Source: an uncultured Bacteroidales bacterium
Lineage (GTDB): Bacteria; Bacteroidota; Bacteroidia; Bacteroidales; FEN-979
NCBI GenBank assembly: GCA_903885595.1
Contig: CAISJJ010000536.1
Coordinates: 1 to 32,183, forward strand
Reading direction: 5' to 3'
DNA: 32,183 bases
Below the pieces are notes generated by a model that saw only the letters and a program-made list of their open reading frames with translations, had not been told where the DNA came from and ran no database searches. This document shows, in pieces, positions 12,838-28,318 of this stretch; position 1 is the first letter of the stretch, and each line of letters opens with the position of its first letter. The position numbers and the translations under genes were made by a program.

Positions 12838-14994
12838 CTAAAAAGTATATCCCAGGTTAATTGAAAGGTAATAATCCCTTGGGGCGCCTGCTTCATAAAA
12901 TCGCTTATCGGCTGAATTGGTATTGGTAAATCCGACATAAATCTCGTTAAAAATATTATTGATCCCCCCGGAAGCCATGATGTTTAATTTTCCGAATCTC
13001 AGATCCAGTCCCAACAAACCATTCAGAAGGTTATAGGCCTTTGTCTTGTCGGTGTTTTCATCGTCAACCCACAGACCGCTGATTCCCTGGTAACTGGCTT
13101 TTGCAAATATGTTTACATGCTTGCCAAGCGGTCGGGAGTAGGCAAGCGAAACATACAGATTATTTGTTGGAACACTCGGTACAATGTTGCCTGAAAAATC
13201 CTTGGTGTGGCTTACCAGATTTCCAAGGGAGTCTTCAATGGTTTTGGCTTCATAGGTCAGATATTTGAAATCAGACCAGGTATAGGTCAGTCCGAAGTTA
13301 AGGCCTTCATATATTTCAAGCTGTGCCCCCAGTTCAACACCCAACCGGTTTGTCTTGGCTGCATTCCGGTAAAATACTTCACCTAAAACCTCATAAGGAA
13401 TGATTTCATTGTCAATGCGGATGTTAAAGATGGTCGCTTCATATATGAATCTTTTAAGAAAACGCTTATCCCATCTGAACATATTCCCCTTGATCCCGAT
13501 TTCGAAGTTTTGCGACTCTTGAGGGTTTAGATCCTGGTTAAACAGATAGGCCGGAACAGGACTCGCCATTTCATTCGCTGCGGGAGCATCGAAACTTAAT
13601 CCGAATGAGGTGTATAGTGCAATCAAAGGGGTTAGTTTATAATTCAAAGCAAGTTTAGGCGTAAATGCATTGAATGGCCTTCGGTCGGTGCGCGATGGTA
13701 AAGTCTCCTCCGTTTGGTCATATACGACATTGTCATAACGGCCTGTCAATAATACAAACATTTTTTCCTTGAGAATTTCGAAATTATCAGATATGTAAAA
13801 ACCCTTATTGACAATGTTCTCGCTTTCCAACTGAAGGATCTGGTCTCCCTTTTCCCCGTTGATGTTTTCGTAATATTCGGTTCTTGCAGGTTGCGAGAAC
13901 AGGTCACCACCAATTGAAAATTCATTATGTCGTTTCCCCAGCATTGATTTATTGGTATACCTTCCACTGAGTCCTAAGCCGTAACGGTTTATAATCCGGT
14001 AGTCTTTTGCCGTGCGTTCAAAAAATTTAATGGTACCGTAGGCAGTGATCTCAATTTCATTATTTAAGTTCCCTCCGAATGCTGCATCATACCTGATCAC
14101 TACTCTTCCCTTTGTCGTAATCCGTTTCTCATCACGGCTGACCGATTTGGGATTTGCCTGCCAGGGATCTGCTTCAAATTCCGCTTTGGTCAATGAGCCC
14201 GGCAGTTTAATGGCGCCGTCGACAAAATACCCCAGGATAGAAAGTGATGTGTGCGGAGAGGGATTGGTCTCCAGTACCATGTTCACAATGTGCCAGTATT
14301 CGTTGTTGTGCTGTCGGTACCCATCATAATTTATGTAGCTGTATGTCGTAAGGAACCGGTATTTATCTGTTTTGACTGCAGCTTTAAACCCATTTTTTCG
14401 CAATCCGAAAGATCCGAACTGATTGAACTGAACAATGGAGGACCGGTCAAACTCGATGTCATTGATGAAGTTTGCAACTCCTCCCGGCGCATTGGTGTAA
14501 AGGGATGATGCGTTGCCCTTCACGATCTCTATCCTGCCGATTGAATTGAAATCCAGCGCCTCCAGGCGAGTTTGTCCATCAGGTTCCGATTCGGGTATGT
14601 CATCCAGTAAAATCCTGATTCCACGTACCCCCGAATTCGAACGGCTGCCAAAACCCCTGATTGAAAACCTGACATCATGATCGCCGTAGCGTGATTGTAA
14701 AAATAAACCAGGGACAGCAGAAAGCATATCATTAGAGCCTATTTTCCGGTCATATTTGTATGAAGTGTAATTCAAACGGACAACCGAATAGGGAATATCG
14801 ATGATGCGGTGCGACACCCTGGTAGCCGTAATAACCACCTCATCCAATTCACGGTATATGGTATCGGGAATGGAAGGTAATGTGTCATTCAGGGTGATTT
14901 TCTGCGAAAAGGCATTCAAGTTCCCAAGTCCAAGCAGGATCAGGAGCATCAATGTCGAAAAAGTAATTTTTTTCTTACCGGAGTTCCTTTTCAT
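12838..14994 (-). CDS. TonB-dependent outer-membrane receptor (FecA-like)
   Basis: A 718-residue outer-membrane receptor for TonB-driven uptake. The signal peptide ends near AFSQ (28-31). A TonB-box-like DEVVITATR lies at 51-59 and the plug domain at about 62-178, with the conserved VRFSIRGFGSRSNSGVRG, DGQTRLEALDFNSIGRIEIV and APGGVANFIND segments. The 22-stranded barrel follows and ends in NLGYTF with a terminal Phe. There is no carboxypeptidase-like N-terminal domain and no SusD partner, so it is not a SusC-type glycan receptor. The plug resembles iron-siderophore/citrate receptors. The substrate cannot be fixed from sequence, and no siderophore genes are nearby. Confidence 0.9.
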   Translation of the reverse strand: MKRNSGKKKITFSTLMLLILLGLGNLNAFSQKITLNDTLPSIPDTIYRELDEVVITATRVSHRIIDIPYSVVRLNYTSYKYDRKIGSNDMLSAVPGLFLQSRYGDHDVRFSIRGFGSRSNSGVRGIRILLDDIPESEPDGQTRLEALDFNSIGRIEIVKGNASSLYTNAPGGVANFINDIEFDRSSIVQFNQFGSFGLRKNGFKAAVKTDKYRFLTTYSYINYDGYRQHNNEYWHIVNMVLETNPSPHTSLSILGYFVDGAIKLPGSLTKAEFEADPWQANPKSVSRDEKRITTKGRVVIRYDAAFGGNLNNEIEITAYGTIKFFERTAKDYRIINRYGLGLSGRYTNKSMLGKRHNEFSIGGDLFSQPARTEYYENINGEKGDQILQLESENIVNKGFYISDNFEILKEKMFVLLTGRYDNVVYDQTEETLPSRTDRRPFNAFTPKLALNYKLTPLIALYTSFGLSFDAPAANEMASPVPAYLFNQDLNPQESQNFEIGIKGNMFRWDKRFLKRFIYEATIFNIRIDNEIIPYEVLGEVFYRNAAKTNRLGVELGAQLEIYEGLNFGLTYTWSDFKYLTYEAKTIEDSLGNLVSHTKDFSGNIVPSVPTNNLYVSLAYSRPLGKHVNIFAKASYQGISGLWVDDENTDKTKAYNLLNGLLGLDLRFGKLNIMASGGINNIFNEIYVGFTNTNSADKRFYEAGAPRDYYLSINLGYTF

Positions 14995-16427: not shown

Positions 16428-16964
16428 TCATTTTCCCATGGCAAGCCTTCTTTCATTAGGATGGTCGGAGTAAATCTGCACAGCTCTCACCGGAATCACC
16501 TCCTTGTGCTGAGCCCATGCAAGTGCCTCCATGGATTTTGTCTTGTTTTTTCTGGCAGTGACAACAGGATTGATGAGGGCTGTTTTTCCGGTGGAGACCA
16601 GCGTGGTGTTGTCATAATGAAAAACCTCCTGAGCATGTATGTTTGCCGGGGGCTTGTGGGTTAGAATATAAGCTTCCCATGCACGGTGGCGAAAAGGTTG
16701 ATCAACGCCGGCACATGCATAGCATAGTTCATGACCAGTGGCAAGATGTGTCATCCAGGATAATCGGTTTTCCGGAGAAATTACCTCTGCCTTGATATTC
16801 TCTGCTTCCCCGATGTATATTAGTTTTAGCAGGTCTACAGTCTGATCTGCTGCATTGTAACTTGCTTCATAAACAAAGAATATACCTGAATATTCTGCCA
16901 GGCAGGCTTGGTGCTGGTCGCGCCAGTATCCGCTGATATGTATAACGATTGTTTGTTCAGCCAT
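16428..16964 (-). CDS. GIY-YIG-like domain protein
   Basis: A 178-residue protein. Residues 27-52 show GIF...LIYIG, a match to the GIY-YIG nuclease core, but with 20 residues between the two halves instead of the usual 10 or so. Downstream lie Arg67, His73 and a Glu97 in EAYILTHKPPAN, placed like the family's catalytic arginine and metal-binding glutamate. The C-terminal 60 residues are basic and unassigned. A DNA-processing role is possible but unproven. It is divergent from the response-regulator gene; the 178-bp gap contains the operator-like repeats. Its start is the first Met (MAEQTIVIHI). Confidence 0.6.
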   Translation of the reverse strand: MAEQTIVIHISGYWRDQHQACLAEYSGIFFVYEASYNAADQTVDLLKLIYIGEAENIKAEVISPENRLSWMTHLATGHELCYACAGVDQPFRHRAWEAYILTHKPPANIHAQEVFHYDNTTLVSTGKTALINPVVTARKNKTKSMEALAWAQHKEVIPVRAVQIYSDHPNERRLAMGK

Positions 16965-17062: not shown

Positions 17063-17130
17063 GTGTAAAATGTGTAAAATAACTTTACAGTTAATGTAAA
17101 ATTATTTTACATTTGTTTACACTTTTTACA
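17063..17130. promoter_or_regulatory. Operator cluster GTGTAAA-N5-TTTACA upstream of the response regulator
   Basis: Two full dyads are present: GTGTAAAATAACTTTACAG at 17072-17090 and ATGTAAAATTATTTTACAT at 17094-17112, with centres 22 bp apart. A flanking half site GTGTAAA lies at 17063-17069, and reversed half sites TTTACAC and TTTACA lie at 17116-17122 and 17125-17130. The cluster ends 12 bp before the ATG at 17143. The same 6-5-6 dyad occurs twice upstream of the precursor gene at 28270-28318. The position so close to the start suggests autoregulation, probably repression, of the regulator gene. That is inference. Confidence 0.75.
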
Positions 17131-17142
17131 ATCGTATTTGAC

Positions 17143-18516
17143 ATGGACAAAAAAGCGAAATTACTGATCGTTGAAGACAACCCTGAAATACTGCAGGCGC
17201 TGCAATTTTTCCTTGAGTATGAATTTCAGTTGATTACCTCTCTGACGAATCCCAACCTTATCCCTTCAACCCTTCGTGCAGAACAATATGACATAGTGCT
17301 GCTGGATATGAATTTCACAGCTGGTATCAATACCGGGAATGAAGGCCTTTTCTGGCTTGCCGAGATCCTGAAAATTGATCCTACTTTATGTGTGATCATG
17401 ATGACGGCTTATGGCAATATTGATCTGGCGGTGAAGGCCATCAAAATCGGAGCCACCGACTTTGTAATGAAACCATGGGACAACGATAAATTACTCGCAA
17501 CGCTCAATGCGGGATTGAAAATACGTAAGTCTTCCATTGAATTCAATAAAAAGCATGAGAATTCCGACCAGTCCAATATGGATCTTGAACAGCAATTTTC
17601 GGAATTTATTGGCGAATGCCCTGCGATCAGGCGGGTGATGGACATTGTTGACAAGGTTTCACAAACCGATGCAAATATTCTGTTAACAGGTGAAAATGGT
17701 ACTGGTAAAGGATTGATTGCCAAAGAAATACATCGAAGATCCCATCGTACACAGCGTCAAATGGTAACAGTCGACATGTCGTCGATCCCGGTTTCTTTGT
17801 TTGAAAGTGAACTGTTTGGTCATAAAAAAGGAGCTTTTACCGATGCCAGGCAGGACCGGATCGGGCGGTTTGAAAGTGCGAGCCTCAGTACCCTGTTTCT
17901 TGATGAAATTGGGAACCTGTCGTTGAATATGCAGACTAAAATCCTCAATGTTTTACAGGAACGTCAGATTGTACCGCTTGGATCAAATAAGGTTATCCCC
18001 ATCGACGTCAGGTTGATTTGTGCCACCAATAAGCATTTGGAAAAAATGGTCATGGAAGGACTGTTCCGTCAGGATCTTTTATTCCGGATCAATACCATTC
18101 AGATTGATCTGCCGCCGCTTCGTGAGCGTGGACGTGATATCGAACTGATGGCGGGATATTTTCTTGATAAATTTTCTGTGAAATACAACAAAGGTCAAAT
18201 GAGTTTCGATCACCTGGCCATGCTTGCCCTGAAAAGTTATCCATGGCCGGGAAATATCCGTGAGCTGGAACATTCCATCGAAAAGGCAGTGATCCTTTCC
18301 GATTATCGCATCGTTCAGGCTGACGATCTGTTATTGAAAAAATTTCCCGTTCAGGGAAATAACCTGGCCGAGATTCCTGCTTCGTTCGACGAATATGAAA
18401 AGAATATTATCAAGAATGCATTGCTCAGAAATATGGGAAACCTGTCGAATGCAGCCCGGGAACTAGGAATCTCACGACCTACGATGTATAAAAAGATCAA
18501 GGAGTATGGTCTGTAG
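17143..18516 (+). CDS. Sigma-54-dependent response regulator (NtrC family)
   Basis: 457 residues from the ATG at 17143. An upstream TTG at 17113 would place the operator repeats inside the gene, so it is rejected. The receiver domain has Asp12, phospho-acceptor Asp55 in VLLDMNF, Thr88 and Lys110. The AAA+ sigma-54 interaction domain has Walker A GENGTGKG (183-190), the loop GAFTDA (230-235, where GAFTGA is the classic form), Walker B LFLDEIGN and the arginine region FRQDLLFRIN. A C-terminal Fis-type helix-turn-helix is visible (NLSNAARELGISRPTMYKKI). It should bind dyad sites upstream of -24/-12 promoters and activate RNA polymerase with sigma-54. Its stop overlaps the kinase start by 11 bp. 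It faces the peptide operon, whose upstream region carries matching dyads. Confidence 0.93.
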   Translation: MDKKAKLLIVEDNPEILQALQFFLEYEFQLITSLTNPNLIPSTLRAEQYDIVLLDMNFTAGINTGNEGLFWLAEILKIDPTLCVIMMTAYGNIDLAVKAIKIGATDFVMKPWDNDKLLATLNAGLKIRKSSIEFNKKHENSDQSNMDLEQQFSEFIGECPAIRRVMDIVDKVSQTDANILLTGENGTGKGLIAKEIHRRSHRTQRQMVTVDMSSIPVSLFESELFGHKKGAFTDARQDRIGRFESASLSTLFLDEIGNLSLNMQTKILNVLQERQIVPLGSNKVIPIDVRLICATNKHLEKMVMEGLFRQDLLFRINTIQIDLPPLRERGRDIELMAGYFLDKFSVKYNKGQMSFDHLAMLALKSYPWPGNIRELEHSIEKAVILSDYRIVQADDLLLKKFPVQGNNLAEIPASFDEYEKNIIKNALLRNMGNLSNAARELGISRPTMYKKIKEYGL

Positions 18517-19858
18517 ACAATACTATGTCAGCATAGTAATGAGAGTTCTTTTTCTGGCATTGAGTTGCCTCCTTTTTTTTTATATCATCTTCCGTATTCC
18601 CAATTACTCGATGATATTCCTTGCTGCTGCAATGGTAGTTTACAGCATTGTTTCGCTGGTGCGGTATCTGAATAAAATCAATCAGAAGCTGGAGAACTTT
18701 TTCCTGTCTCATCTGAGCGGCGAAGTCAATTATACATATGTCCCGGTTGGAAGGTCTGATGAATTCAATAAACTATATTCTTACTTTAACCAGATCAATC
18801 AGAAACTGGAGAAAGCGAGGATTGAAAATGAGATCAGGAATAATTATTTTAAAACCATTGTTGATCAGACCTCTATCGGACTTATTTCATTTACCGGTGA
18901 TGGACGGGTGGAATTTATCAATGATGCAGCCAAGCGCATATTCAAAGTTTTTGTTGTTGGAAACCTGAAAAAGCTGGATATCTTTCATGAAGGATTCAGC
19001 GAATTCATTTTGCGCCTTGAACCTCAGAAATTAGAACTTACATCGGTGGTGGTCGATGGCGAAACAGTTCAGCTATCCATTAAAAAGGTCGATTTCAAAG
19101 CGGGAGATAAACATATTCACCTGATTTCGCTGCAAAACATCAAAGCTGAACTGGATCAAAAGGAAATGGAATCATGGCAAAAGCTGATTCGTGTGCTTAC
19201 CCATGAAATCATGAATTCTATTACTCCGATAACCTCCCTGGTGAATACCATTTCACGGATTTTCAAAAACAGGGAAACCGGTGACATCACCAAGCCCGAA
19301 CATACTACATCCCAGGCCATTGAGAAGACTGTAAAAATGCTCGATATCGTTGAAGGCAGAGGGGCCGGACTTGTTCAGTTTGTGAATAATTACCGTGATC
19401 TGACAAAGTTGTCAAAGCCCCAGTTAATGCTCATCAATGTCAATAACTTGCTTCTGAATGTTCAATTGCTTTTTGCCGAACAGTTGAAGGAACAAAATAT
19501 TCGTGTTCTGATTTCATGCCACCGCACCATCCATATCCAGGCCGACCGTAAATTGTTGGAACAGGTTTTGATCAACCTGTTTAAAAATGCCATGGAAGCC
19601 TGCACCGGCAGACAGGATAGCCTGATCAAACTCTCGGCACTGTCGGGTCAGGATAAGACAATCATTGAGGTTGAGGACAATGGTTATGGAATTCCACCTG
19701 TGGTTGCTGAAAATATGTTTGTTCCCTTTTTTACAACTAAAGAAAAGGGATCAGGGATCGGGCTGAGCCTGTCGCGACAGATTATCAGGTTGCATGGCGG
19801 AAGCCTGAATTACTATTCTGTGCCCGGACAGAAGACTATCTTTACAATTAAAATATGA
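18506..19858 (+). CDS. Sensor histidine kinase, short-loop membrane type, partner of the upstream regulator
   Basis: 450 residues from the ATG at 18506, which overlaps the regulator stop by 11 bp; an ATG at 18539 is a reasonable alternative. Two membrane helices (about 13-29 and 35-53) are joined by only about six residues, so there is no extracytoplasmic sensor domain. A HAMP-like linker and coiled region (about 55-112) and a PAS-like domain (about 113-210) follow. The dimerisation helix has His233 in LTHEIMNSITP. The ATPase domain has the N box INLFKNAMEA (356-365), G1 DNGYGIP (391-397) and G2 GSGIGL (415-420). It is expected to phosphorylate Asp55 of the regulator. Short-loop kinases often sense through a partner transporter. 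Its 3' end is 2 bp from the ATPase gene on the other strand. Confidence 0.92.
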   Translation: MVCRQYYVSIVMRVLFLALSCLLFFYIIFRIPNYSMIFLAAAMVVYSIVSLVRYLNKINQKLENFFLSHLSGEVNYTYVPVGRSDEFNKLYSYFNQINQKLEKARIENEIRNNYFKTIVDQTSIGLISFTGDGRVEFINDAAKRIFKVFVVGNLKKLDIFHEGFSEFILRLEPQKLELTSVVVDGETVQLSIKKVDFKAGDKHIHLISLQNIKAELDQKEMESWQKLIRVLTHEIMNSITPITSLVNTISRIFKNRETGDITKPEHTTSQAIEKTVKMLDIVEGRGAGLVQFVNNYRDLTKLSKPQLMLINVNNLLLNVQLLFAEQLKEQNIRVLISCHRTIHIQADRKLLEQVLINLFKNAMEACTGRQDSLIKLSALSGQDKTIIEVEDNGYGIPPVVAENMFVPFFTTKEKGSGIGLSLSRQIIRLHGGSLNYYSVPGQKTIFTIKI

Positions 19859-19860
19859 CA

Positions 19861-20532
19861 TCAGAATCGTTCATTTACGATCTGACCATCAAAGAGATTC
19901 ACGATACGACCGCTGAATTCTGCATCACGCTGAGAGTGTGTTACCATTACAATGGTTGTTCCGGTATTATTGAGCAGGGTAAGCATATTCATGATCTCTT
20001 CTCCTCTGGCTGAATCAAGATTTCCGGTTGGTTCATCAGCCAGGATCAGTGAAGGATTGGTGATCAGGGCACGCGCCACGGCCACCTGCTGCTGTTGTCC
20101 CCCTGAAAGCTGCACCGGGAACTGATTTTTCCGGTGAACAATCTCAAATTTATTCAGTATTTCATCTACCCTCGATTTGCGCTCACTGCCCCTGATACCC
20201 AGGTATACCAGAGGGAGTTCAATGTTTTCGAAAATGGTCAGCTCATCGATGAGGTTGAAATTCTGAAAAATGAAACCAATTTTTTCTTTTCGAAGTTGCG
20301 CCCGTTGTTTTTCGGAATACCCGGCAACATTTTCTTCCAAGAAAAAATAGTTCCCCGCAGTAGGGGAGTCAAGTAGCCCGAGAATATTCAGCAGGGTTGA
20401 TTTTCCGCAGCCTGAAGGCCCCATGATTGCTACAAATTCACCCGGAAGAACTTGAAAATCGACCTTATTCAATGCCCTGGTTTCTACGGCATCCGATTGA
20501 AATACCTTGACCAGTGATTCTGTTCTAAGCAT
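19861..20532 (-). CDS. ABC transporter ATPase, LolD/MacB type
   Basis: A 223-residue cytoplasmic ATPase that normally pairs with FtsX-like permeases. Walker A is GPSGCGKST (38-46), the Q loop is in FIFQNFNL, the signature LSGGQ spans 142-146, Walker B is LILADEPTG (162-170) and the H-loop is VMVTHS. The residue usually Arg three positions after LSGGQ (LSGGQQQR) is Gln here (LSGGQQQQV), a small oddity. It is the last gene of the peptide operon, 17 bp after the C39 exporter. The only FtsX-type permease in the window is two genes upstream, so the two probably form one transporter. No periplasmic adaptor (MacA/HlyD) or TolC gene is present. Confidence 0.9.
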
Positions 20533-20549
20533 ACCTACCCATATTAATG

Positions 20550-22745
20550 TTAACCTAATTCAAGCTGGTTACGCACAAGTTCATAATAAAATCCTTTCAG
20601 TATGATCAATTGATCATGCGTGCCTTGTTCGACGATCCGTCCCTTTTCCAGGACAATGATCTGGTCGGCATGCCTGACGGTACTTAAACGGTGAGCAACA
20701 ATTACCGCTGTTTTTCCGTGAAAGAATGCAGCCAGGTTCTCTACGATTTTTCGTTCGTTTGAGGCATCAAGTGAATTGGTTGCCTCATCAAAAAACAGAT
20801 ATTCCGGGTTGCGGTAAATTGCCCGTGCAATCAGGATCCGCTGTTTTTGTCCTTCGCTGATACCGGCTCCATCCTGCCCGATGCGTGTGTTGATACCCAG
20901 AGGCAAAGTGGCAATGTAATCGTCAAGATTGGCTGCCCCGATCGAACGGGATAGTTTTTGGTCATCGGTAGCATCTCCGCTTAAGGCAATGTTGTTGGCA
21001 ATGGTATCTGAAAAGATATATCCATCCTGCATCACCGATCCGCATTGACTTCGCCAGAACCTGCAGGAGATGTCGTTTAGCGGGACCTCACCGATGCTGA
21101 TCCGGCCGGTTACTGGTTTGTAAAATCCAAGCAGCAGTTTGACCAGGGTTGTTTTTCCACTCCCGCTGGAGCCAACGATGGCGGTGACTTTTTGTGATGG
21201 AATGGAAAGCGTTATATGCTGCAGGACTTCTGGTGAATGCGGGCCTTCATATTGAAAAGAGACATCGCTGATGTTGATGTCATGGTTTGAAGGCAAAACC
21301 CGCATCCCCGGTAAATCCGGATCCTCTTCATCCCTTTGTGCATTGATCTCCTCCAGCCGGTCCATGCTGATACTGGCATCCTGAGCCTCCCTGAGAAAAT
21401 TAACCATTTGCTCTACCGGGTTGTTCAGCTGTCCCAAAATATATTGGATGGATAACATCATCCCAAGCGTGAGTTCTCCCTTGATTACCAGGCCGGCTGC
21501 CAGAAAGGTGATAAGAATATCTTTCGTTCTTACGAAAAAGAGCGCCCCTGCACTCTGGTACTGGTTCAGGGTCAGACTTTTGATGCTCAGCTTATAGAGA
21601 TTTTCCTGGATGTTTTCCCATTCCCTGCGTTTCTGATCTTCGCAGTTATACAGCTTTATCTCCTGCATGCCCGTGATCATCTGGATCAGGGTATTCTGGT
21701 TTTCGGCCAGCCGTGCGAACCTGATATAATCCAGTTCCCTTCTTTTTCTCATAAAAAGATAAACCCAGGCAGCATACAGGGCGCTTCCAAGCAGAAATAC
21801 CATGAAAATGAGAACATTGTAATAAAGCAGTACGGCTCCGAAAATGAAAAAAGTGACCATGGAGAAGAGCACATTGAGGGAACTTACCGTCAGAAACGAT
21901 TGAATTCTTTGGTGGTCCTGGATCCGTTGCATCAGGTCTCCGATCATTTTGGAATCAAAAAACCCGAGCGGGAGCTTCATGATCTTGGCCAGAAAATCGG
22001 AGATCAGCGATATGTTAATGCGCGTGCTGATATGCAGCAATATCCAGCCCCTGAGGTATTCGATCACCGTGAGCCCGGTGAAAAGCGCAAGCTGCCCCAG
22101 AAGTACCAGGGTAATGAAACCAAGATCGTGATTCCGTATGCCCCTGTCAACGATCGACTGGGTGAGAAACGGAAAGGTCAGCTGGACCAGACTGCCAAGC
22201 ACCATGCCCAGGAATAACTGAAACAGGGCTTTCTGACGCGGCTTTAAATAGGGCACAAGGAATTTGAATTTTGACGGGGGCGAAGGTTCACCTGGTTGCT
22301 GGTTAAACGTTTCTCCTGGTTCAAGTAACAGGCAGACACCGGCATCGTGATCCTCATTTCCTGCAAGCCATGATTTCATGAATTCATCCTTCGGCAAGGT
22401 CAGTTTTCCATGAGCCGGATCGGCAATATAAACCCACTCTTTTCCCCTTTTATTCCTGATGTTATGCACGACCACAAAATGACGCTGGTTCCAGTGTACA
22501 ATGCATGGGAGCGGCGCTTCACCGGCTAGCTGGTCAAAGGTAAGCTGGGCGCCAAGCACATTGAAGCCAATTGCTTCGGCCGCGTCGCTGATCCCCAGCA
22601 ACGAAACCCCGTCGCGTGTAATGTAACACTTTTCGCGCAAAGTGGTCAGCCGGTATTTTTTCCCATGATGCCTGGCAATCATCTGAAGGCAGGCCGGGCC
22701 GCAGTCCATTGAATCGTGCTGGTGATAAAAAACAAAACCCATCAT
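20550..22745 (-). CDS. C39-peptidase ABC exporter (GG-leader processing and export)
   Basis: About 731 residues. I chose the ATG at 22745, which overlaps the permease stop as ATGA (a second ATG is at 22742), over the upstream start at 22859, because the C39 domain begins at once with FVFYHQHDSMDCGPACLQM. Catalytic residues are Cys15, His89 (QRHFVVV) and Asp109 (IADPA), with oxyanion Gln9. The membrane domain (about 170-440) is followed by an ATPase with Walker A GSSGSGKTT (525-533), signature ISEGQKQR (629-636) and the switch AHRLS. The family cuts leader peptides after a double glycine and exports the product. The precursor at 27934-28149 has exactly such a leader, so this is the probable maturation protease and exporter. 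Confidence 0.93.
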   Translation of the reverse strand: MMGFVFYHQHDSMDCGPACLQMIARHHGKKYRLTTLREKCYITRDGVSLLGISDAAEAIGFNVLGAQLTFDQLAGEAPLPCIVHWNQRHFVVVHNIRNKRGKEWVYIADPAHGKLTLPKDEFMKSWLAGNEDHDAGVCLLLEPGETFNQQPGEPSPPSKFKFLVPYLKPRQKALFQLFLGMVLGSLVQLTFPFLTQSIVDRGIRNHDLGFITLVLLGQLALFTGLTVIEYLRGWILLHISTRINISLISDFLAKIMKLPLGFFDSKMIGDLMQRIQDHQRIQSFLTVSSLNVLFSMVTFFIFGAVLLYYNVLIFMVFLLGSALYAAWVYLFMRKRRELDYIRFARLAENQNTLIQMITGMQEIKLYNCEDQKRREWENIQENLYKLSIKSLTLNQYQSAGALFFVRTKDILITFLAAGLVIKGELTLGMMLSIQYILGQLNNPVEQMVNFLREAQDASISMDRLEEINAQRDEEDPDLPGMRVLPSNHDINISDVSFQYEGPHSPEVLQHITLSIPSQKVTAIVGSSGSGKTTLVKLLLGFYKPVTGRISIGEVPLNDISCRFWRSQCGSVMQDGYIFSDTIANNIALSGDATDDQKLSRSIGAANLDDYIATLPLGINTRIGQDGAGISEGQKQRILIARAIYRNPEYLFFDEATNSLDASNERKIVENLAAFFHGKTAVIVAHRLSTVRHADQIIVLEKGRIVEQGTHDQLIILKGFYYELVRNQLELG

Positions 22746-25135
22746 TCGTATTTTAGGACATTTGCAGGATTTTCGCGTAAAATCCTGAGCGTTTTCATCA
22801 GCAGGATCAGTGATACAAAACCGCCAACCGCAACTACTGATAAAAAGAACAAGTGCCATTGCAACGAAACCCGGTAATAAAATTCATTGAGCCATAAGGA
22901 TAATACATACCATGCCAGGGGTATGGCAATGGCAGCGGCAATGATCACAAAGACAATGAATTCTTTTTGAATTAAATAAATAATGATCCCCGGTGATGCA
23001 CCAAAAACCCTGCGTATGGTCATCTCTTTCATCCGGCGTTCTACGATCAGCATCGCCAGTCCGAATAATCCCATCCCGGTAATGACAAAAGCCAGGAAGG
23101 TAAACGAACCAATAACCCTTCCGAAATTTTGTTCCTTGATGTACAGCTCGTTGAGCTTTTCATCAAAAAACTTGTATTCCAATGGAACGTTGGGCGTAAG
23201 CCCTTCCCACGATCGAATGATCACATCCAGGACATCTTCCTCCTTCCCGGCCTTGAACCTGATAACCAGCGACTGAAAAGCCTCCGGGTTAAAAAGGAAA
23301 ATGGCCGGATTGATCTGTTTATGCAGCGAATGAATATTAAAGTCTTTTACCACACCAATTATCCTGAACCGCCCGATTGTATTCTGTAAAGGATCCCTGA
23401 ACTCCAGCTGCCGCAATGCCTCTTCGTTAATGATGACTGATTTCGCGTTGACGACCTGTTCATTGGGATTAAAATCTTTCCCCAGTACAAAATCAATCCC
23501 CATTGTTTCAAAGAAATGATGATCAATGGACAGCCGCTCAAAAGAGACCGTTTTCTTTTTATCCCCCGGGAGTTTGAGGTTCGTCATAGAGACATCTTTG
23601 GTGGGAAGCGCAATGGAGATTCCGGTCAATGACAATATATGAGAGGAGGTTGCCAGGACTTTTTTAACCTGCTGATATTGGCTGATGTCAAATTGCTTCA
23701 AGGATAAAACGATCAGGTTTTCCTTGTTAATACCATTCTTCTGACCCAGGAACAGCTTGATTTGCTCATGAATGGTGAGCAAAGAGATGAAAAGTGCAAT
23801 GGTTATCAGAAATTGGAACACGATGAAAATTTTACTGAAACTTACCTTCTTGTATATGTAGTAGTTCGATTTCAGTGCAGTAAGCGGATCAAGGGACGAG
23901 AGATATACCGCAATGTATGATCCTGACAGGATTCCTATGCAGATGGTGATCCCTGCGGTAATGGCAATGTAGGATATCGCATTGCTTGAAACAAAAAAGA
24001 TTTCGTATGAATAATAGTATTGAATAACTGGTGCAACCAATCCCAGGATAAGAAATGCGAGTGGAAAGGCAATAATCGTCAGCAGGAGTGATTCGGTAAG
24101 TACCTGGCTCCTGAGATTCCGCCGGGTTGCGCCCAAAACCTTTCTGACCCCGATCTCCTTAAATCGCATGGCCGAACGCGCGGTGCTGAGCATTGAGTAA
24201 TTTATGGTTGCAAGCAGAAGAATGAAAAAGGCCAGGGAAAGGTAAATAAATATGTTTTGCATGCTTCCTTTGGCAATGAAATCATTTTGCAGATCATTTG
24301 AATGGAGATAGATCTTGGTGAAGTTTTGAAATTCAAATGATAGACCTGCATTGGAATAGTAGTTCGTGGTGAACCAGGGTAATCTTTTATTGATGGATTC
24401 AATGGAGCCGTTTTGCCTGATTACAATATAAGTTTCTACCATTAATTCATTTTCCAGCGATTCGTTCGGCTCGGCTAATTGCTGGCTTTTAAGCCATATG
24501 TCAGTAAAGAGCCCGATCCCGCAAATAAAATCCGGTTTTAAAGTTGAATTCCAGGGCAGGTTTTCATAAACTCCTTCAACTAAAAGATTATAGATGAGGC
24601 CGTTAATATTCACCTCCAGGTCTTTTCCGACAGGCGACTCCTTCTCGAAAAATCGTTTTGCTGCATCAGATGATATGAATACAAAAAATGGATGCTTCAG
24701 CGCCTGGGACCTTCTGCCCGATATTATTTTAATTTTTAAGGAATTAAATATTTCAGGATCAGCACAATAAAATTTTGAAACCGGAATATTTTGCGAATTA
24801 TTGCGAATGTCAACTGCTCCATAATAATTATCAAGGCTGATAATTCTGAAAGATTTGTCAATTTCCGGAAAAGATTTGATTAAGGAGGTTTTAATATTCA
24901 GGGGCCCCAAAGGCTGCCTGTTCCCTTTCATATCATTGACAATCAGCCGGTATATACTATCTGCATTTTTAAACCAACTGTTAAAGCTCAACTCGTTGAT
25001 GGCAAAAATGATCAGGATAAACGATGCCGTCAGTCCCAATACGAGCCCCGACAGGTTTATTGCAGTGTAAATCCTGCTCCTGCTAAGAATCCGGAAGGAT
25101 AATTTTAAATTATGCAGAAAAACCTGGCGCATCAT
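22742..25135 (-). CDS. FtsX/MacB-type ABC transporter permease
   Basis: About 797 residues. I prefer the ATG at 25135, which overlaps the preceding stop as ATGATG, over 25150. It is a Bacteroidota-type long FtsX permease. A first helix (about 24-45) is followed by a periplasmic MacB_PCD-like domain (about 50-285). A helical block then carries the FtsX core ARSAMRFKEIGVRKVLGATR, followed by further helices, a second periplasmic domain and the second core ERRMKEMTIRRVFGASPG near the C terminus. Such permeases transmit ATP-driven motion to periplasmic substrates such as peptides or lipoproteins. Being inside the peptide operon, it may act in export, immunity or sensing. The ATPase partner is probably encoded two genes downstream. 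Confidence 0.9.
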   Translation of the reverse strand: MMRQVFLHNLKLSFRILSRSRIYTAINLSGLVLGLTASFILIIFAINELSFNSWFKNADSIYRLIVNDMKGNRQPLGPLNIKTSLIKSFPEIDKSFRIISLDNYYGAVDIRNNSQNIPVSKFYCADPEIFNSLKIKIISGRRSQALKHPFFVFISSDAAKRFFEKESPVGKDLEVNINGLIYNLLVEGVYENLPWNSTLKPDFICGIGLFTDIWLKSQQLAEPNESLENELMVETYIVIRQNGSIESINKRLPWFTTNYYSNAGLSFEFQNFTKIYLHSNDLQNDFIAKGSMQNIFIYLSLAFFILLLATINYSMLSTARSAMRFKEIGVRKVLGATRRNLRSQVLTESLLLTIIAFPLAFLILGLVAPVIQYYYSYEIFFVSSNAISYIAITAGITICIGILSGSYIAVYLSSLDPLTALKSNYYIYKKVSFSKIFIVFQFLITIALFISLLTIHEQIKLFLGQKNGINKENLIVLSLKQFDISQYQQVKKVLATSSHILSLTGISIALPTKDVSMTNLKLPGDKKKTVSFERLSIDHHFFETMGIDFVLGKDFNPNEQVVNAKSVIINEEALRQLEFRDPLQNTIGRFRIIGVVKDFNIHSLHKQINPAIFLFNPEAFQSLVIRFKAGKEEDVLDVIIRSWEGLTPNVPLEYKFFDEKLNELYIKEQNFGRVIGSFTFLAFVITGMGLFGLAMLIVERRMKEMTIRRVFGASPGIIIYLIQKEFIVFVIIAAAIAIPLAWYVLSLWLNEFYYRVSLQWHLFFLSVVAVGGFVSLILLMKTLRILRENPANVLKYE

Positions 25136-26367
25136 GAATGGATATGGCAAAAGTTGAACCGGTTGAGATAGATTTCGTAATTACTGATGGGTGGGCAAAG
25201 GAATTGAAATATACAATCACTGCATGGGTTTACTCCCGTCCGCATCCTTATCCAGCTTTTCCCTGAACTGATCTCCTGCCTGATGATGCTTTCAAGAGAC
25301 TCGGTAGCGGCATTGCCAACCGCCTTATCGTTCATATTTGCCAGTACGCTGCCATCGGGCAGAATAATCAGTTTGCCATAGTCGTTTTCATTCATGGTCA
25401 TCCTGGAAAATATTTGATATTGAGATGGTTGCGACAATTTTACATCCTCTTCGGTAATGAATACATGATCTTTGAAAAACTGCATATTATCCCCATTGAA
25501 GTATGGCTTGAAAAATGCCTGTTTTATCGAAAACTGCCTGATTATTTCTATCGCCTGATCAACATCTTCGCTTTTCTGAACGATAAAATAAAACTCAACA
25601 TGTTGAATATGATCGTGATGCTGACAAAGAGCTGTTAATTTTTCAATTTGCAGCCGGTCAAGCGGAAAAGAGAAATACAGGGACAACCAGTCAAATTTTT
25701 TCAACACGTTCCGGCAATCCTGATCTGATTGACTGAAGGGCATGTGAAATTTCCGGCGGAATGAAGTGCCTGCGAACATGCTGCTGAGTTTTTCCAATTT
25801 GGAGGCCGTCATGATGCCGGAGCTGACAAAGTTAATGGTTGCAAGCGGCAACGCGCTGATCTGGCTGAATACCGAATGTATAATGTCGTCCGATAATTCC
25901 ACGGCCGCATGTGATACGAACATGGGATAAATAAATTGTTTTGAAGCATCCTTAAATCTCTCCAGGCTTTTATCAGAGCCTGTATCCAGGTGAAAAGTGA
26001 TCTCATGCAGGTGGTGCTCTATTGTTTGCAGCCCCTTTTTGATCACCGGTTCCGGAATAATATTAAATGGTTTTGATGCCGACCATCCGGGGGCAAAAAC
26101 ATCGCCCATGTACTTTTGGCGAAGTTGTGCAATAAATTTCTGAATAACAGGCGATTTGATCTGGTCATCCGTTAATTGATAAACATAGCCGTTTGAAGGA
26201 TCGAGAAGTTGCTGAACGATTTCAGAAATTTCAGTCAAACCGCTGTATATCAGATATTTTTTGTTAACCGTGTTGTAGAGGAGAACCTGGTCGTTTTTTA
26301 CAACGCCGTGAACAAATGGTTCAATTGAGAGCCAGCCGGCCCGGGAGTTATTCATGAAAAGCTTCAT
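25132..26367 (-). CDS. Pseudo-radical-SAM partner protein, GG-Bacteroidales type
   Basis: A 411-residue protein whose start overlaps the maturase stop by 20 bp (an ATG at 26355 also overlaps). It resembles a radical SAM/SPASM protein in length and layout, but the CxxxCxxC SAM-cluster motif is absent: the equivalent strand reads ITFHLDTGSDK, with no cysteine. A C-terminal cysteine set remains at C382, C385, C391 and C407 (C-x2-C-x5-C-x15-C, in NPCSDCIFQFLCPPISNYE and FNFC). This parallels C440/C443/C449 of the maturase. The sequence fits my recollection of the pseudo-rSAM family of the GG-Bacteroidales system (TIGR04150). It may bind an iron-sulfur cluster or the precursor peptide as a scaffold. 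It is unlikely to cleave SAM. Confidence 0.8.
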   Translation of the reverse strand: MKLFMNNSRAGWLSIEPFVHGVVKNDQVLLYNTVNKKYLIYSGLTEISEIVQQLLDPSNGYVYQLTDDQIKSPVIQKFIAQLRQKYMGDVFAPGWSASKPFNIIPEPVIKKGLQTIEHHLHEITFHLDTGSDKSLERFKDASKQFIYPMFVSHAAVELSDDIIHSVFSQISALPLATINFVSSGIMTASKLEKLSSMFAGTSFRRKFHMPFSQSDQDCRNVLKKFDWLSLYFSFPLDRLQIEKLTALCQHHDHIQHVEFYFIVQKSEDVDQAIEIIRQFSIKQAFFKPYFNGDNMQFFKDHVFITEEDVKLSQPSQYQIFSRMTMNENDYGKLIILPDGSVLANMNDKAVGNAATESLESIIRQEISSGKSWIRMRTGVNPCSDCIFQFLCPPISNYEIYLNRFNFCHIHS

Positions 26368-27856
26368 TAATCAGGTGGCGGTACAACGAAAAGTTTTCCT
26401 CAATCAAATTGAAATTTCTGGCCAGGTAAAGCGGAAATTTTTTAACATCCATAAAGTATTCACATACAGGATTTTCTGTTTCAACCCCGGTATTAAAAAC
26501 ACACTCTTTACAATTATCGGCAAGAAAACACTGATTGCAAAGTGGCCTGATTTTATCGAAACACCGGTTGAACAAATCGGCAACTGTTTCATTTTGTATC
26601 CTGATCTCATTGTTTTTCAATTGTCCGATTTCAAAAACCCTGCTGATGTGTTCACAGGGTACGATACAACCATCGGCAGTTAGAAAAACCCGCAAAGAAA
26701 ACGGGGAACAGGTCGCTGTGGGCACAAACTCCTTTGTTCCGCCATTGCCATTACTGGTGGTCATTATCTCGAAATGGTTTTTAAATATATAGCCGGAGTA
26801 TTTTTCGATGACATTTGACAGATCTTTCATCGCCGGGTGATTGAGCATCAGTTCGCGGATAACTGTTTTTTGATGCTCATCATTCCTGGTCCCTTCGATA
26901 AAGGTTTTGTGAAATTCCTCCTTATACTCCTCGTTGATATGCTGCGTACTGATCAGCGAGACAAGGGGCGTTTTACCATATTTCTGTTTGAAAAAGGCAT
27001 GAACACTGCTGAAACTGTTTTTGTTGTGAAGAACTGTAAGAAAGGAGATGTTTTTATCAAAATAGTCAGGAAAATTTTCTTTTATGAAATCAAGATTTTT
27101 AACGACCAGGTCAAAGGATGACTGTTTGTTTGGCAAAAGCCTGAAGGAATTTCCAACCTCATCGCCGTCGAGGCTGACAGAAATTTCGAAATTATTCGAC
27201 GTCAGAAACCCGGCGTATTTTGAGAGCAGCAAACCATTGCTTGACATGGTGAACCTGAAATTATAACGATCGCCATACGTATTAGTCAGATAATCAACTA
27301 TTTCCTGGATGAAACGAATGTTTTTCAATGGTTCACCTCCATAAAAACTGATGGTGAGCTGGCTTGCATCCTTGTCTCGCATTGAAAGCATATGATCCAG
27401 CGCCTTACGGGCATCGGCCGGATTGAATTTCCGTTTTCCGCGTTCTTTGTTGATATAGAATTTGCTGTAGGTGCAATAGGTGCAGGAGAGGTTGCAATCT
27501 TCGGTCGTCTCAAAAATCACCTGCTGGATCCTGGAGATGTTTTTCGAAACCCGGGAGGGGAGGAGCCTTCCGTTCAGATTAATATTTCTGGGTATTTGAA
27601 AGAAACGGTTTTTTTTAAGGAAACGGAACTTATTCCATTGATAAATCAATTCACTGAAAGGGAAACCTCCATATTCAGGGATTTCAATTTCCTGGCCGGG
27701 TCGAAAGGATTGAATGTATTGCTTCAGGTCTGTTCCTGATTCATTCAGTTCAAACAGATGCCTGATCAGCGGATGGCACAATAAAACCTGGTTCCTGAAG
27801 GGACTATAAAGAAACAGATTGCCTTTTGAAGTTTTAAAAATGACTGCTTTTTTCAT
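26348..27856 (-). CDS. Radical SAM/SPASM peptide maturase, GG-Bacteroidales type
   Basis: A 502-residue enzyme. An N-terminal domain of about 105 residues precedes the radical SAM core with CNLSCTYC (Cys121, Cys125, Cys128 bind the 4Fe-4S cluster) and the SAM motif FYGGEP (171-176). The C-terminal SPASM region has many cysteines: C383, C397, C401, C432, C440, C443, C449, C452 and C465, consistent with two auxiliary clusters. Enzymes of this class modify ribosomal peptides, for example by thioether or carbon-carbon crosslinks. The gene follows the precursor by 77 bp and overlaps the pseudo-enzyme. It matches the recalled maturase of the GG-Bacteroidales system (TIGR04148). The chemistry on this substrate is unknown. 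An unusually good Shine-Dalgarno precedes the ATG at 27856. Confidence 0.9.
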   Translation of the reverse strand: MKKAVIFKTSKGNLFLYSPFRNQVLLCHPLIRHLFELNESGTDLKQYIQSFRPGQEIEIPEYGGFPFSELIYQWNKFRFLKKNRFFQIPRNINLNGRLLPSRVSKNISRIQQVIFETTEDCNLSCTYCTYSKFYINKERGKRKFNPADARKALDHMLSMRDKDASQLTISFYGGEPLKNIRFIQEIVDYLTNTYGDRYNFRFTMSSNGLLLSKYAGFLTSNNFEISVSLDGDEVGNSFRLLPNKQSSFDLVVKNLDFIKENFPDYFDKNISFLTVLHNKNSFSSVHAFFKQKYGKTPLVSLISTQHINEEYKEEFHKTFIEGTRNDEHQKTVIRELMLNHPAMKDLSNVIEKYSGYIFKNHFEIMTTSNGNGGTKEFVPTATCSPFSLRVFLTADGCIVPCEHISRVFEIGQLKNNEIRIQNETVADLFNRCFDKIRPLCNQCFLADNCKECVFNTGVETENPVCEYFMDVKKFPLYLARNFNLIEENFSLYRHLINEAFHE

Positions 27857-27862
27857 AAACTG

Positions 27863-27868
27863 CCTCCT
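27863..27868 (-). promoter_or_regulatory. Strong Shine-Dalgarno AGGAGG of the maturase gene
   Basis: On the minus strand AGGAGG precedes ATG (27856) with a 6-nt spacer. This is a near-perfect anti-16S match, whereas the other genes here show none, as is usual in Bacteroidota. It directly abuts the hairpin at 27869-27889. Confidence 0.6.
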
Positions 27869-27889
27869 TCCTGGTTTTCTAAGCCAGGA
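27869..27889 (-). other. Hairpin between precursor and maturase
   Basis: TCCTGG and CCAGGA form a 6-bp stem around a 9-nt loop, ending at the AGGAGG ribosome site. There is no T-tract. It could slow transcription, mark an mRNA processing point or protect the precursor mRNA. The position suits a device that keeps precursor levels above enzyme levels. That role is inferred. Confidence 0.35.
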
Positions 27890-27933
27890 TACTGAGGGGC
27901 AAATTTAACGATTTTTAAATGCGCGATCAATTG

Positions 27934-28149
27934 TTATACCAGGGAGGGCCTGTCCTGAACAGTGCTGCTGGTGGTTGGGGATTCACCGCATACGCACAGG
28001 TCGCCAATCGGACCACCCGACCGTTTAGTCGATTGATGGGGATTATCAACTGAACAAAAACATTTAACATCAATACCGCCTTTAATCTGGGCTAACATAT
28101 TCTTTCTGATTTCGGCTTTGTACAGGGTAACGAGGCTAAGTTTTTTCAT
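27934..28149 (-). CDS. RiPP precursor peptide, GG-leader, two C-x-C motifs in the core
   Basis: A 71-residue peptide. The leader MKKLSLVTLYKAEIRKNMLA followed by QIKGG (residues 1-25) has the KKLsL...E...M..I-K-G-G pattern of Bacteroidota natural-product precursors, as in the recalled GG-Bacteroidales precursor family (TIGR04149). Cleavage after Gly25 by the C39 exporter would leave a 46-residue core. The core has four cysteines in two motifs, KCFCS (C30, C32) and LCVCG (C52, C54), each followed by an acidic residue and Pro. A second SGG at 44-46 lies between them, and the tail is rich in Thr, Ser and Pro (SPTTSSTVQ). It is the first gene of the operon, behind a sigma-54-like promoter and paired dyads. 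The mature structure and activity are unknown. Confidence 0.88.
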   Translation of the reverse strand: MKKLSLVTLYKAEIRKNMLAQIKGGIDVKCFCSVDNPHQSTKRSGGPIGDLCVCGESPTTSSTVQDRPSLV

Positions 28150-28199
28150 GGCTTTATGTTTTTATTTTTGGTTTAGTTTTCAATGTTATGCCAATAGCA

Positions 28200-28217
28200 T
28201 AACAAAATTAATGCCAA
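28200..28217 (-). promoter_or_regulatory. Putative sigma-54 (-24/-12) promoter of the precursor operon
   Basis: The minus strand reads TTGGCATTAATTTTGTTA from 28217 to 28200. GG of the -24 element (28215-28214) and G of the -12 element (28203) have the required 12-base offset. The -12 element is GT where GC is standard. Transcription would begin near 28191, about 42 nt before the ATG. Caution: the same bases contain TAATTTTG, which fits the housekeeping -7 element, but there is no TTTG at the matching -33 distance. Confidence 0.55.
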
Positions 28218-28269
28218 TGTGATAATGTAATGATATTCAATAGTATATAAAATTGTAATAATTGAAATT

Positions 28270-28318
28270 GTGTAAAAATATTTTACACTTATGTAAAATG
28301 TGTAAAGAAGATTTACAC
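28270..28318. promoter_or_regulatory. Paired upstream operators GTGTAAA-N5-TTTACAC of the precursor operon
   Basis: Dyad 1 is GTGTAAAAATATTTTACAC (28270-28288) and dyad 2 is GTGTAAAGAAGATTTACAC (28300-28318). Both have perfect 7-bp arms and 5-nt centres, with centres 30 bp apart. A half site TGTAAA (28292-28297) lies between them. Relative to the predicted start near 28191 they are centred at about -88 and -118, typical for NtrC-type enhancer sites. They match the dyads upstream of the response regulator. Dyad 2 ends 2 bp from the BatA-like stop codon. Confidence 0.8.

What the first reader, a model, noticed from the sequence alone, without database searches (positions are those of the whole stretch)
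17063..28318. Self-contained RiPP locus of the GG-Bacteroidales type with dedicated regulation and two transport modules
In one 11-kb block lie a GG-leader precursor, a radical SAM/SPASM maturase, a pseudo-radical-SAM partner, an FtsX permease, a C39 exporter, an ATPase and a sigma-54 two-component pair. Precursor, maturase and pseudo-enzyme fit a family triad I recall as uncharacterised in product. The C39 peptidase matches the GG leader. The combination with its own sigma-54 switch makes a complete induced peptide system of unknown activity.
Basis: partly seen in the sequence, partly recalled or inferred. Interest (0 to 1): 0.88.

Follow-up and report, generated by a model that had tools for sequence, protein, structure and literature searches.

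The report
Sigma-54-switched four-cysteine peptide factory
A bacterium related to uncultured Bacteroidales carries a conserved eight-gene block that encodes a small four-cysteine peptide, a radical enzyme predicted to modify it, exporters that would trim and move it, and a sensor-regulator pair whose likely binding site occurs, in exact copies outside coding sequence, only in front of this block's own two promoters, so a peptide of unknown purpose with what looks like a private on-switch can now be tested.

Summary
Precursor, radical SAM maturase, pseudo-rSAM, FtsX permease, C39 exporter and ATPase form one tight minus-strand operon, tail to tail with a sigma-54 response regulator and kinase. 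Maturase and pseudo-rSAM pass the TIGR04148 and TIGR04150 cut-offs; the precursor (12.7 bits) fails TIGR04149 (25). It is a distinct type with a CxC...CxC core, four Cys invariant in 35 of 35 aligned proteins. The eight genes recur in the same order in 11 complete loci; the maturases form one clade (support 100). New: a -24/-12 sigma-54 element before the precursor (at most one mismatch in 12 of 14 loci, 0 of 170 control ORFs) and paired palindromes GTGTAAA-N5-TTTACAC before both the precursor and the regulator gene. Four of six exact sites in the 6-Mb genome are here; the other two lie inside ORFs. One subclade carries a changed operator at both promoters; two close relatives lack clear sites. 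The regulator-kinase-ATPase-FtsX half has sister cassettes with adaptor and TolC-like genes; those partners are missing here. Product chemistry, activity and signal are unknown. New variant of a known kind.

The parts
16428..16964 (-). 178-aa uncharacterised protein, divergent from the regulator gene; accessory ninth gene of the block in the window's subclade (by eye a GIY-YIG-like pattern; recalled, no family hit)
   Evidence: found in 6 of 43 family genomes, beside the block regulator in all six; no Pfam, NCBIfam, PDB or PADLOC hit, one PHROG at E 0.23
17072..17090 (.). operator palindrome 1 before the regulator gene (exact core TGTAAA-N5-TTTACA at 17073-17089)
17094..17112 (.). operator palindrome 2 before the regulator gene (exact core 17095-17111)
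17143..18516 (+). sigma-54-dependent NtrC/AtoC-type response regulator (receiver, AAA+ with GAFTDA loop, Fis HTH)
18506..19858 (+). histidine kinase: two adjacent hydrophobic stretches with almost no loop, weak PAS, HATPase
19861..20532 (-). LolD/MacB-type ABC ATPase (likely partner of the FtsX permease)
20550..22745 (-). C39 peptidase-containing ABC exporter (QHDSMDCGPAC, HFVVV, DPAHG)
22742..25150 (-). FtsX/MacB-type permease with two MacB_PCD and two FtsX stretches (ADOP-like)
25132..26367 (-). pseudo-radical-SAM partner (TIGR04150): predicted rSAM/SPASM fold, no Cx3Cx2C, SPASM-type cysteines kept
26348..27856 (-). radical SAM/SPASM maturase (TIGR04148)
27934..28149 (-). 71-aa precursor: 25-residue GG leader, core with CFC and CVC
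28201..28217 (-). sigma-54 -24/-12 element TTGGCAT-N5-TTGTT, 68 bases before the precursor ATG
28270..28288 (.). operator palindrome GTGTAAA-N5-TTTACAC, proximal
28300..28318 (.). operator palindrome GTGTAAA-N5-TTTACAC, distal, 30 bases further upstream

Best explanation
This is a conserved operon for a predicted RiPP (ribosomal, enzyme-modified peptide), likely to be switched on through sigma-54 by its own two-component pair, which is predicted to bind paired palindromes in front of both the precursor gene and the regulator gene. Shown here: gene content, order, one maturase clade, the repeated palindromes, the conserved sigma-54-type element, the invariant four-cysteine core. Inferred steps: (1) the kinase, with almost no periplasmic part, would get its signal through the membrane, most likely from the FtsX-ATPase transporter; (2) the phosphorylated regulator would bind the two palindromes about 90-120 bases before the predicted start and drive transcription of precursor, enzymes and transporters, while sites close to its own start codon would tune its own level; (3) the maturase, helped by the probably inactive pseudo-rSAM as a leader-binding or electron-carrying partner, would join the CxC cysteines to neighbouring residues, probably by thioether bonds; (4) the C39 exporter would cut after Gly25 and release the core into the periplasm; (5) FtsX-ATPase would then expel the peptide or protect the cell from it, and report on it to the kinase.
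For: Eight genes in the same order in 11 complete loci; 15 block maturases form one clade, support 100, 1 change against 14.0 for shuffled labels. In 43 family genomes the block-type kinase occurs in 16 and the maturase in 16, 15 shared, 11 of them on one contig; both exceptions (G010, G021) end at contig ends inside the block. Sigma-54 element before the precursor: at most 1 mismatch in 12 of 14 loci against 0 of 170 other ORFs of the same loci; at most 2 in 14 of 14 against 11 of 170; at most 1 in 2 of 69 non-block maturases (800 bp) and in 2 of 2000 single-base shuffles. rpoN is present. Operators: 6 exact sites in 6,019,827 bases, 4 here, the other 2 inside ORFs; in 13 loci 42 of 45 operator-like sites lie in the two promoters; L177-L179 carry the GTGTCAA version at both. 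Loci fetched after the pattern was fixed: 4 of 5 regulator promoters and 1 of 1 precursor promoter fit. CxC...CxC in 35 of 35 proteins and 16 of 16 block precursors. All 14 sister kinase-regulator pairs found sit beside ATPase, adaptor and FtsX genes, 13 also beside a TolC-like gene. By correlated divergence the split {RR, HK, ATPase, FtsX} / {precursor, maturase, pseudo-rSAM, C39} ranks 1 of 35.
Confidence: 0.62

Rival explanations
1. An ordinary narrow-spectrum bacteriocin: the modified peptide kills relatives, FtsX-ATPase is self-immunity, and the two-component pair answers envelope damage rather than the peptide.
For: GG leader, C39 exporter and rSAM maturase are bacteriocin-like; the block is patchy (maturase in 16 of 43 family genomes); the core varies faster than the leader (mean 42% against 65%); efflux systems as immunity are discussed for Bacteroidales RiPP clusters in PMC10352776 (section 3.2 read), and Bce-type FtsX transporters in Gram-positives (search listing only).
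Against: The block follows a batA-like gene in 14 of 15 loci with a readable flank and its genes diverge together, unlike a mobile bacteriocin island; no dedicated immunity gene was recognised; the core cysteines are invariant. None of this excludes a bacteriocin.
Confidence: 0.4
2. The exported four-cysteine peptide is a metal- or redox-active molecule (two CxC motifs as ligands) rather than a toxin or signal, and the kinase responds to metal or redox state.
For: CxC...CxC is kept in 35 of 35 aligned proteins and 16 of 16 block precursors while much of the core drifts.
Against: No conserved receptor seen: the window's TonB receptor (12838-14994) had no match in the 2-5 kb of flank read beside eight block regulators (L215-L222), flanks that only partly reach as far as it lies here; cysteines are equally expected as thioether donors.
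Confidence: 0.2
3. The shared palindromes are bound by another regulator and the two-component pair controls something else.
For: No binding data; the two close relatives G011 and G005 lack clear sites.
Against: Sites lie before the regulator gene itself and the precursor; a sigma-54 promoter needs an NtrC-type activator (established knowledge); the operator variant is shared by both promoters in L177-L179; sister intergenic regions show other paired palindromes before sigma-54 elements (palindromes read by eye).
Confidence: 0.08

Closest known systems
TIGR04148/TIGR04149/TIGR04150 rSAM RiPP cassettes of Bacteroidales (five-gene cluster of Bacteroides uniformis ATCC 8492, passages of PMC4573289; BGC3-5 with pseudo-rSAM, BGC5 also with a histidine kinase and response regulator but no transporter, section 3.2 of PMC10352776)
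   Same: GG-leader precursor, TIGR04148-type maturase, TIGR04150 partner, often a C39 exporter; once a two-component pair nearby
   Different: precursor below the TIGR04149 cut-off; FtsX permease, MacB-type ATPase and sigma-54 pair as fixed members; HlyD adaptor shrunken or not found; partner protein without Cx3Cx2C
Sister sigma-54 two-component / MacAB-TolC-like cassettes of the same family (L165, L258-L270)
   Same: same kind of regulator and kinase, ATPase and FtsX; sigma-54-like element before the ATPase in 11 of 13 examined
   Different: no RiPP genes seen; adaptor in 14 of 14 and TolC-like gene in 13 of 14; divergent instead of convergent; block operator in 1 of 13
Bce-type peptide-sensing modules (recalled; search listing)
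   Same: FtsX-type ABC transporter beside a short-loop membrane kinase
   Different: NtrC-type regulator and sigma-54 instead of OmpR-type; permease of the two-domain MacB/ADOP type; tied to peptide production
CteB, SCIFF thioether maturase (5wgg)
   Different: 17% and 8% identity over the aligned parts; other substrate; the pseudo-rSAM lacks Cx3Cx2C

Membership tests
TIGR04148 GG_samocin_CFB maturase | score over curated cut-off 300 | tested here: met
   365.5 bits; C121, C125, C128 and C383, C401, C440, C443, C449, C452, C465 invariant in 27 of 27 aligned
TIGR04150 pseudo_rSAM_GG | score over curated cut-off 250 | tested here: met
   322.1 bits
TIGR04149 GG_sam_targ_CFB precursor | score over curated cut-off 25 | tested here: not met
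   12.7 bits; ten relatives 12.7-23.2; best E among all 35 is 4.6e-05, that of the 23.2-bit member
double-glycine C39 (PCAT) secretion | GG leader with hydrophobic -4, -7, -12 and an intact C39 Cys-His-Asp domain | tested here: met
   the motif positions are recalled; cleavage itself not testable here
sactipeptide / ranthipeptide (thioether RiPP) | Cys-to-carbon thioether in the product | not testable with these tools
   only resemblance: CteB; below-cut-off NCBIfam hits to RumMC and PapB maturases; invariant Cys
sigma-54 (bEBP) regulation | -24/-12 promoter, upstream palindromes, NtrC-type activator, rpoN in the genome | tested here: met
   GAFTDA in 10 of 11 regulators and GTFTDA in 1, in place of the usual GAFTGA
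MacAB-TolC efflux | FtsX permease, ATPase, adaptor and TolC encoded together | tested here: not met
   no adaptor or TolC gene between precursor and regulator; present in sister cassettes
Bce-type sensing module | OmpR-type regulator and permease with a single extracellular domain (recalled) | tested here: not met
   regulator is NtrC-type; permease has two FtsX and two MacB_PCD stretches
Bce-type sensing module | kinase with two TM helices and almost no extracellular loop (recalled) | tested here: met
   hydropathy of 10 block kinases; the two stretches merge in some, as in L007

The most novel reading that the evidence does not exclude
A peptide autoinduction circuit of Gram-negative bacteria: the exported, modified four-cysteine peptide is sensed by the FtsX-ATPase transporter, which switches a loop-less kinase and, through sigma-54, more peptide production - a Bce-like flux sensor wired to a RiPP, with the classical HlyD adaptor discarded stepwise because the FtsX pump took over.
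Probability: 0.2. Interest if true: 0.9.

Novelty: new variant of a known kind. Interest (0 to 1): 0.62.

Why it matters
The held papers that describe GG/rSAM/pseudo-rSAM cassettes of Bacteroidales give no tested function (PMC4573289, passages; PMC10352776, section 3.2). This variant brings a named promoter, named operators and a dedicated switch, so the peptide could be induced on demand. It also looks like a RiPP pathway fused in evolution with a sigma-54/FtsX transport-and-sensing module while losing its normal export adaptor, and it suggests that the 'pseudo' state of the partner enzyme is derived, since 40 of 71 partner proteins outside the block keep the cluster motif.

Tried and rejected
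Mobile island: argued against by the fixed place after a batA-like gene in 14 of 15 readable loci and the single clade; the exception is L172 (G011). In L254 the dehydrogenase gene upstream of batA was not found. Empty site: of 14 same-genus genomes with batA and without the block, two have the neighbouring glycosyltransferase directly after batA (L189, L199); in the other 12 it was not in the stretch fetched.

Metallophore with TonB receptor: no match in the short flanks read.

Other members of the regulon: the two exact sites outside the locus lie inside ORFs (L169, L170), so none is proposed; sites with one mismatch (46 of the 52 counted) were not examined, apart from 8242 in the window, which lies inside ORF 6025-9675.

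Anti-phage defence: only weak viperin hits of the maturase (E 3.9e-09 and 1.2e-07), read as general radical SAM similarity.

Gene between C39 and ATPase in L008, L177-L179: similar by sequence to HlyD-like ORFs (three of those tested pass Pfam HlyD_3), itself without a Pfam hit over cut-off (L177, L179; L008).

Literature: searches of the held open library gave no description of this block; subscription papers are not held, so absence there is not shown. The paper that defined the TIGR families (Haft and Basu, recalled) was not read. PMC9062424, PMC7470986 and PMC8326336 were only searched for terms.

Rows dropped: loci on the same contig as another (L171, L174, L176, L180, and L181, L183, L184); partner ORFs of 330 aa or less, maturases under 300 aa; L009 from the 13-locus count; L270 from the sister promoter list. 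L009, L008, L010, L011 and L173 were labelled 'block' although their contigs do not show all eight genes. One search counted L011 outside the block; one search mends that (0 of 14 block, 40 of 71 others).
Full report
Observation. The window encodes, on the minus strand, a 71-aa precursor (27934-28149), a radical SAM/SPASM maturase (26348-27856), a pseudo-radical-SAM protein (25132-26367), an FtsX/MacB-type permease (22742-25150), a C39 exporter (20550-22745) and an ABC ATPase (19861-20532). On the plus strand an NtrC-type response regulator (17143-18516) and a histidine kinase (18506-19858) run towards them and end two bases short of the ATPase stop.

Precursor. It scores 12.7 bits against TIGR04149, below the cut-off of 25; ten relatives score 12.7-23.2. 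A search of 5.8 billion proteins gave 35 hits of 60-100% identity, the window's own included. In their alignment M1, K2, the GG at 24-25, D27, C30, C32, P37, C52 and C54 are invariant. In the wider block D27 is not (E in L177 and L178, N in L011), but CxC...CxC is there in 16 of 16 block precursors. So the small ORF is a real gene with a GG leader and a four-cysteine core.

Conservation. Complete eight-gene blocks in identical order: window, L006, L007, L012, L013, L172/L218, L175, L177/L215, L178/L216, L179/L217, L254, that is 11 loci. Further loci (L008, L009, L010, L011, L173/L256, L251, L252, L255, L257) agree as far as their contigs reach. Maturases outside this clade have the partner and often C39, but rarely FtsX or the two-component pair (L062, L074, L081 are partial exceptions). 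The 15 block maturases form one clade with support 100 among 88 rows (five of the 15 were labelled block from incomplete contigs). In 43 genomes of the family the block-type kinase (16) and the maturase (16) co-occur in 15, on one contig in 11; the two exceptions end at contig ends.

Regulation. Before the precursor ATG lies TTGGCAT-N5-TTGTT (28217-28201). A -24/-12 element within one mismatch is there in 12 of 14 block loci, against 0 of 170 other ORFs of the same loci and 2 of 69 maturases outside the block; within two mismatches it is 14 of 14, at -64 to -83, against 11 of 170. Further upstream are two 19-base palindromes GTGTAAA-N5-TTTACAC (28270-28288, 28300-28318); two more lie before the regulator gene. 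In the whole 6.02-Mb genome the exact core TGTAAA-N5-TTTACA occurs six times: four here and two inside ORFs elsewhere. At up to one mismatch it occurs 52 times, as often as the backward-read control (52), so it is not enriched genome-wide; in the window 5 sites stand against 0.17 expected from shuffles. Over 13 loci, 42 of 45 operator-like sites are in these two promoters (the pattern was drawn from these loci). In L177-L179 the operator reads GTGTCAA-N5-TTGACA at both promoters: a parallel change expected if one protein reads both. Loci fetched later fitted in 4 of 5 regulator promoters and 1 of 1 precursor promoter (not all independent of earlier loci). G011 and G005 do not fit. No sigma-54 element was found before the regulator gene in 11 loci, and its palindromes lie near the start codon, which suggests feedback on itself (inference).

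Two modules. The family also carries sister pairs of kinase and regulator (kinase 32-37% identical to the window's). All 14 found sit beside an ATPase, an adaptor and FtsX, 13 beside a TolC-like gene; 11 of 13 examined have a sigma-54-like element before the ATPase and 1 of 13 has the block's operator, both at up to two mismatches. In the block, divergence of regulator, kinase, ATPase and FtsX correlates most among themselves and that of precursor, maturase, pseudo-rSAM and C39 among themselves; this split ranks first of 35 (11 loci, pairs not independent, some sequences partial). So the block looks like a RiPP cassette fused to a sigma-54/FtsX module.

Lost adaptor. In 15 non-block loci a HlyD-like ORF of 428-563 aa was found; three of them tested pass Pfam HlyD_3. 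In L008 and L177-L179 only 173-209-aa ORFs remain, in L006 a 55-aa relic, and in the window, L007, L012, L013, L172 and L175 nothing was found. Hence the C39 exporter would release its product into the periplasm, where the FtsX protein's large domains could take it (inference); an adaptor encoded elsewhere is not excluded.

Accessory gene. A 178-aa protein (16428-16964), divergent from the regulator, occurs in 6 of 43 family genomes, in all six beside the block regulator.

Mechanism and limits. Best reading: a sigma-54-switched four-cysteine RiPP whose FtsX-ATPase handles and perhaps reports the product. In the ten block kinases examined hydropathy shows two adjacent membrane stretches with almost no loop, as in intramembrane-sensing kinases (recalled). 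The kinase H-box is HEIMNS in the window and HEIGNS in L007. Chemistry, export, activity and inducer are untested.

Literature. Passages of PMC4573289 and section 3.2 of PMC10352776 describe TIGR04148/04150-type or pseudo-rSAM cassettes without tested function; in the latter one cluster (BGC5) also has a histidine kinase and response regulator, but no transporter. Passages of PMC8939145 mention TIGR04149. Searches for this block found nothing in the held library.

Noticed in passing
L014-L085, partner proteins: Many proteins of the 'pseudo-rSAM' family keep an intact Cx3Cx2C motif (40 of 71 outside the block), so the family name is misleading for them.
   Followed up: partly
L008, L177, L178, L179, L006: Apparent stepwise shrinkage of the HlyD-like adaptor behind the C39 exporter: 428-563 aa elsewhere, 173-209-aa ORFs, a 55-aa relic, none found.
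   Followed up: partly
L165, L258-L270: Sister cassettes: sigma-54 two-component pair beside ATPase, TolC-like, adaptor and FtsX genes, most with a sigma-54-like element and, by eye, their own paired palindromes.
   Followed up: partly
window 16428-16964: Uncharacterised 178-aa protein found only beside the block regulator among 43 family genomes.
   Followed up: partly
L008 9490-9931, L010 5631-6095: Two precursor genes in tandem; no sigma-54 site was found before the second.
   Followed up: no
L007 (SACF01000006.1): Record titled Alphaproteobacteria but with the block and the dehydrogenase-batA neighbours of this Bacteroidales group; looks like a wrong label.
   Followed up: no
L074 10258-13440: A Marinifilum maturase locus with FtsX and ATPase in another arrangement, possibly an independent recruitment.
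   Followed up: no
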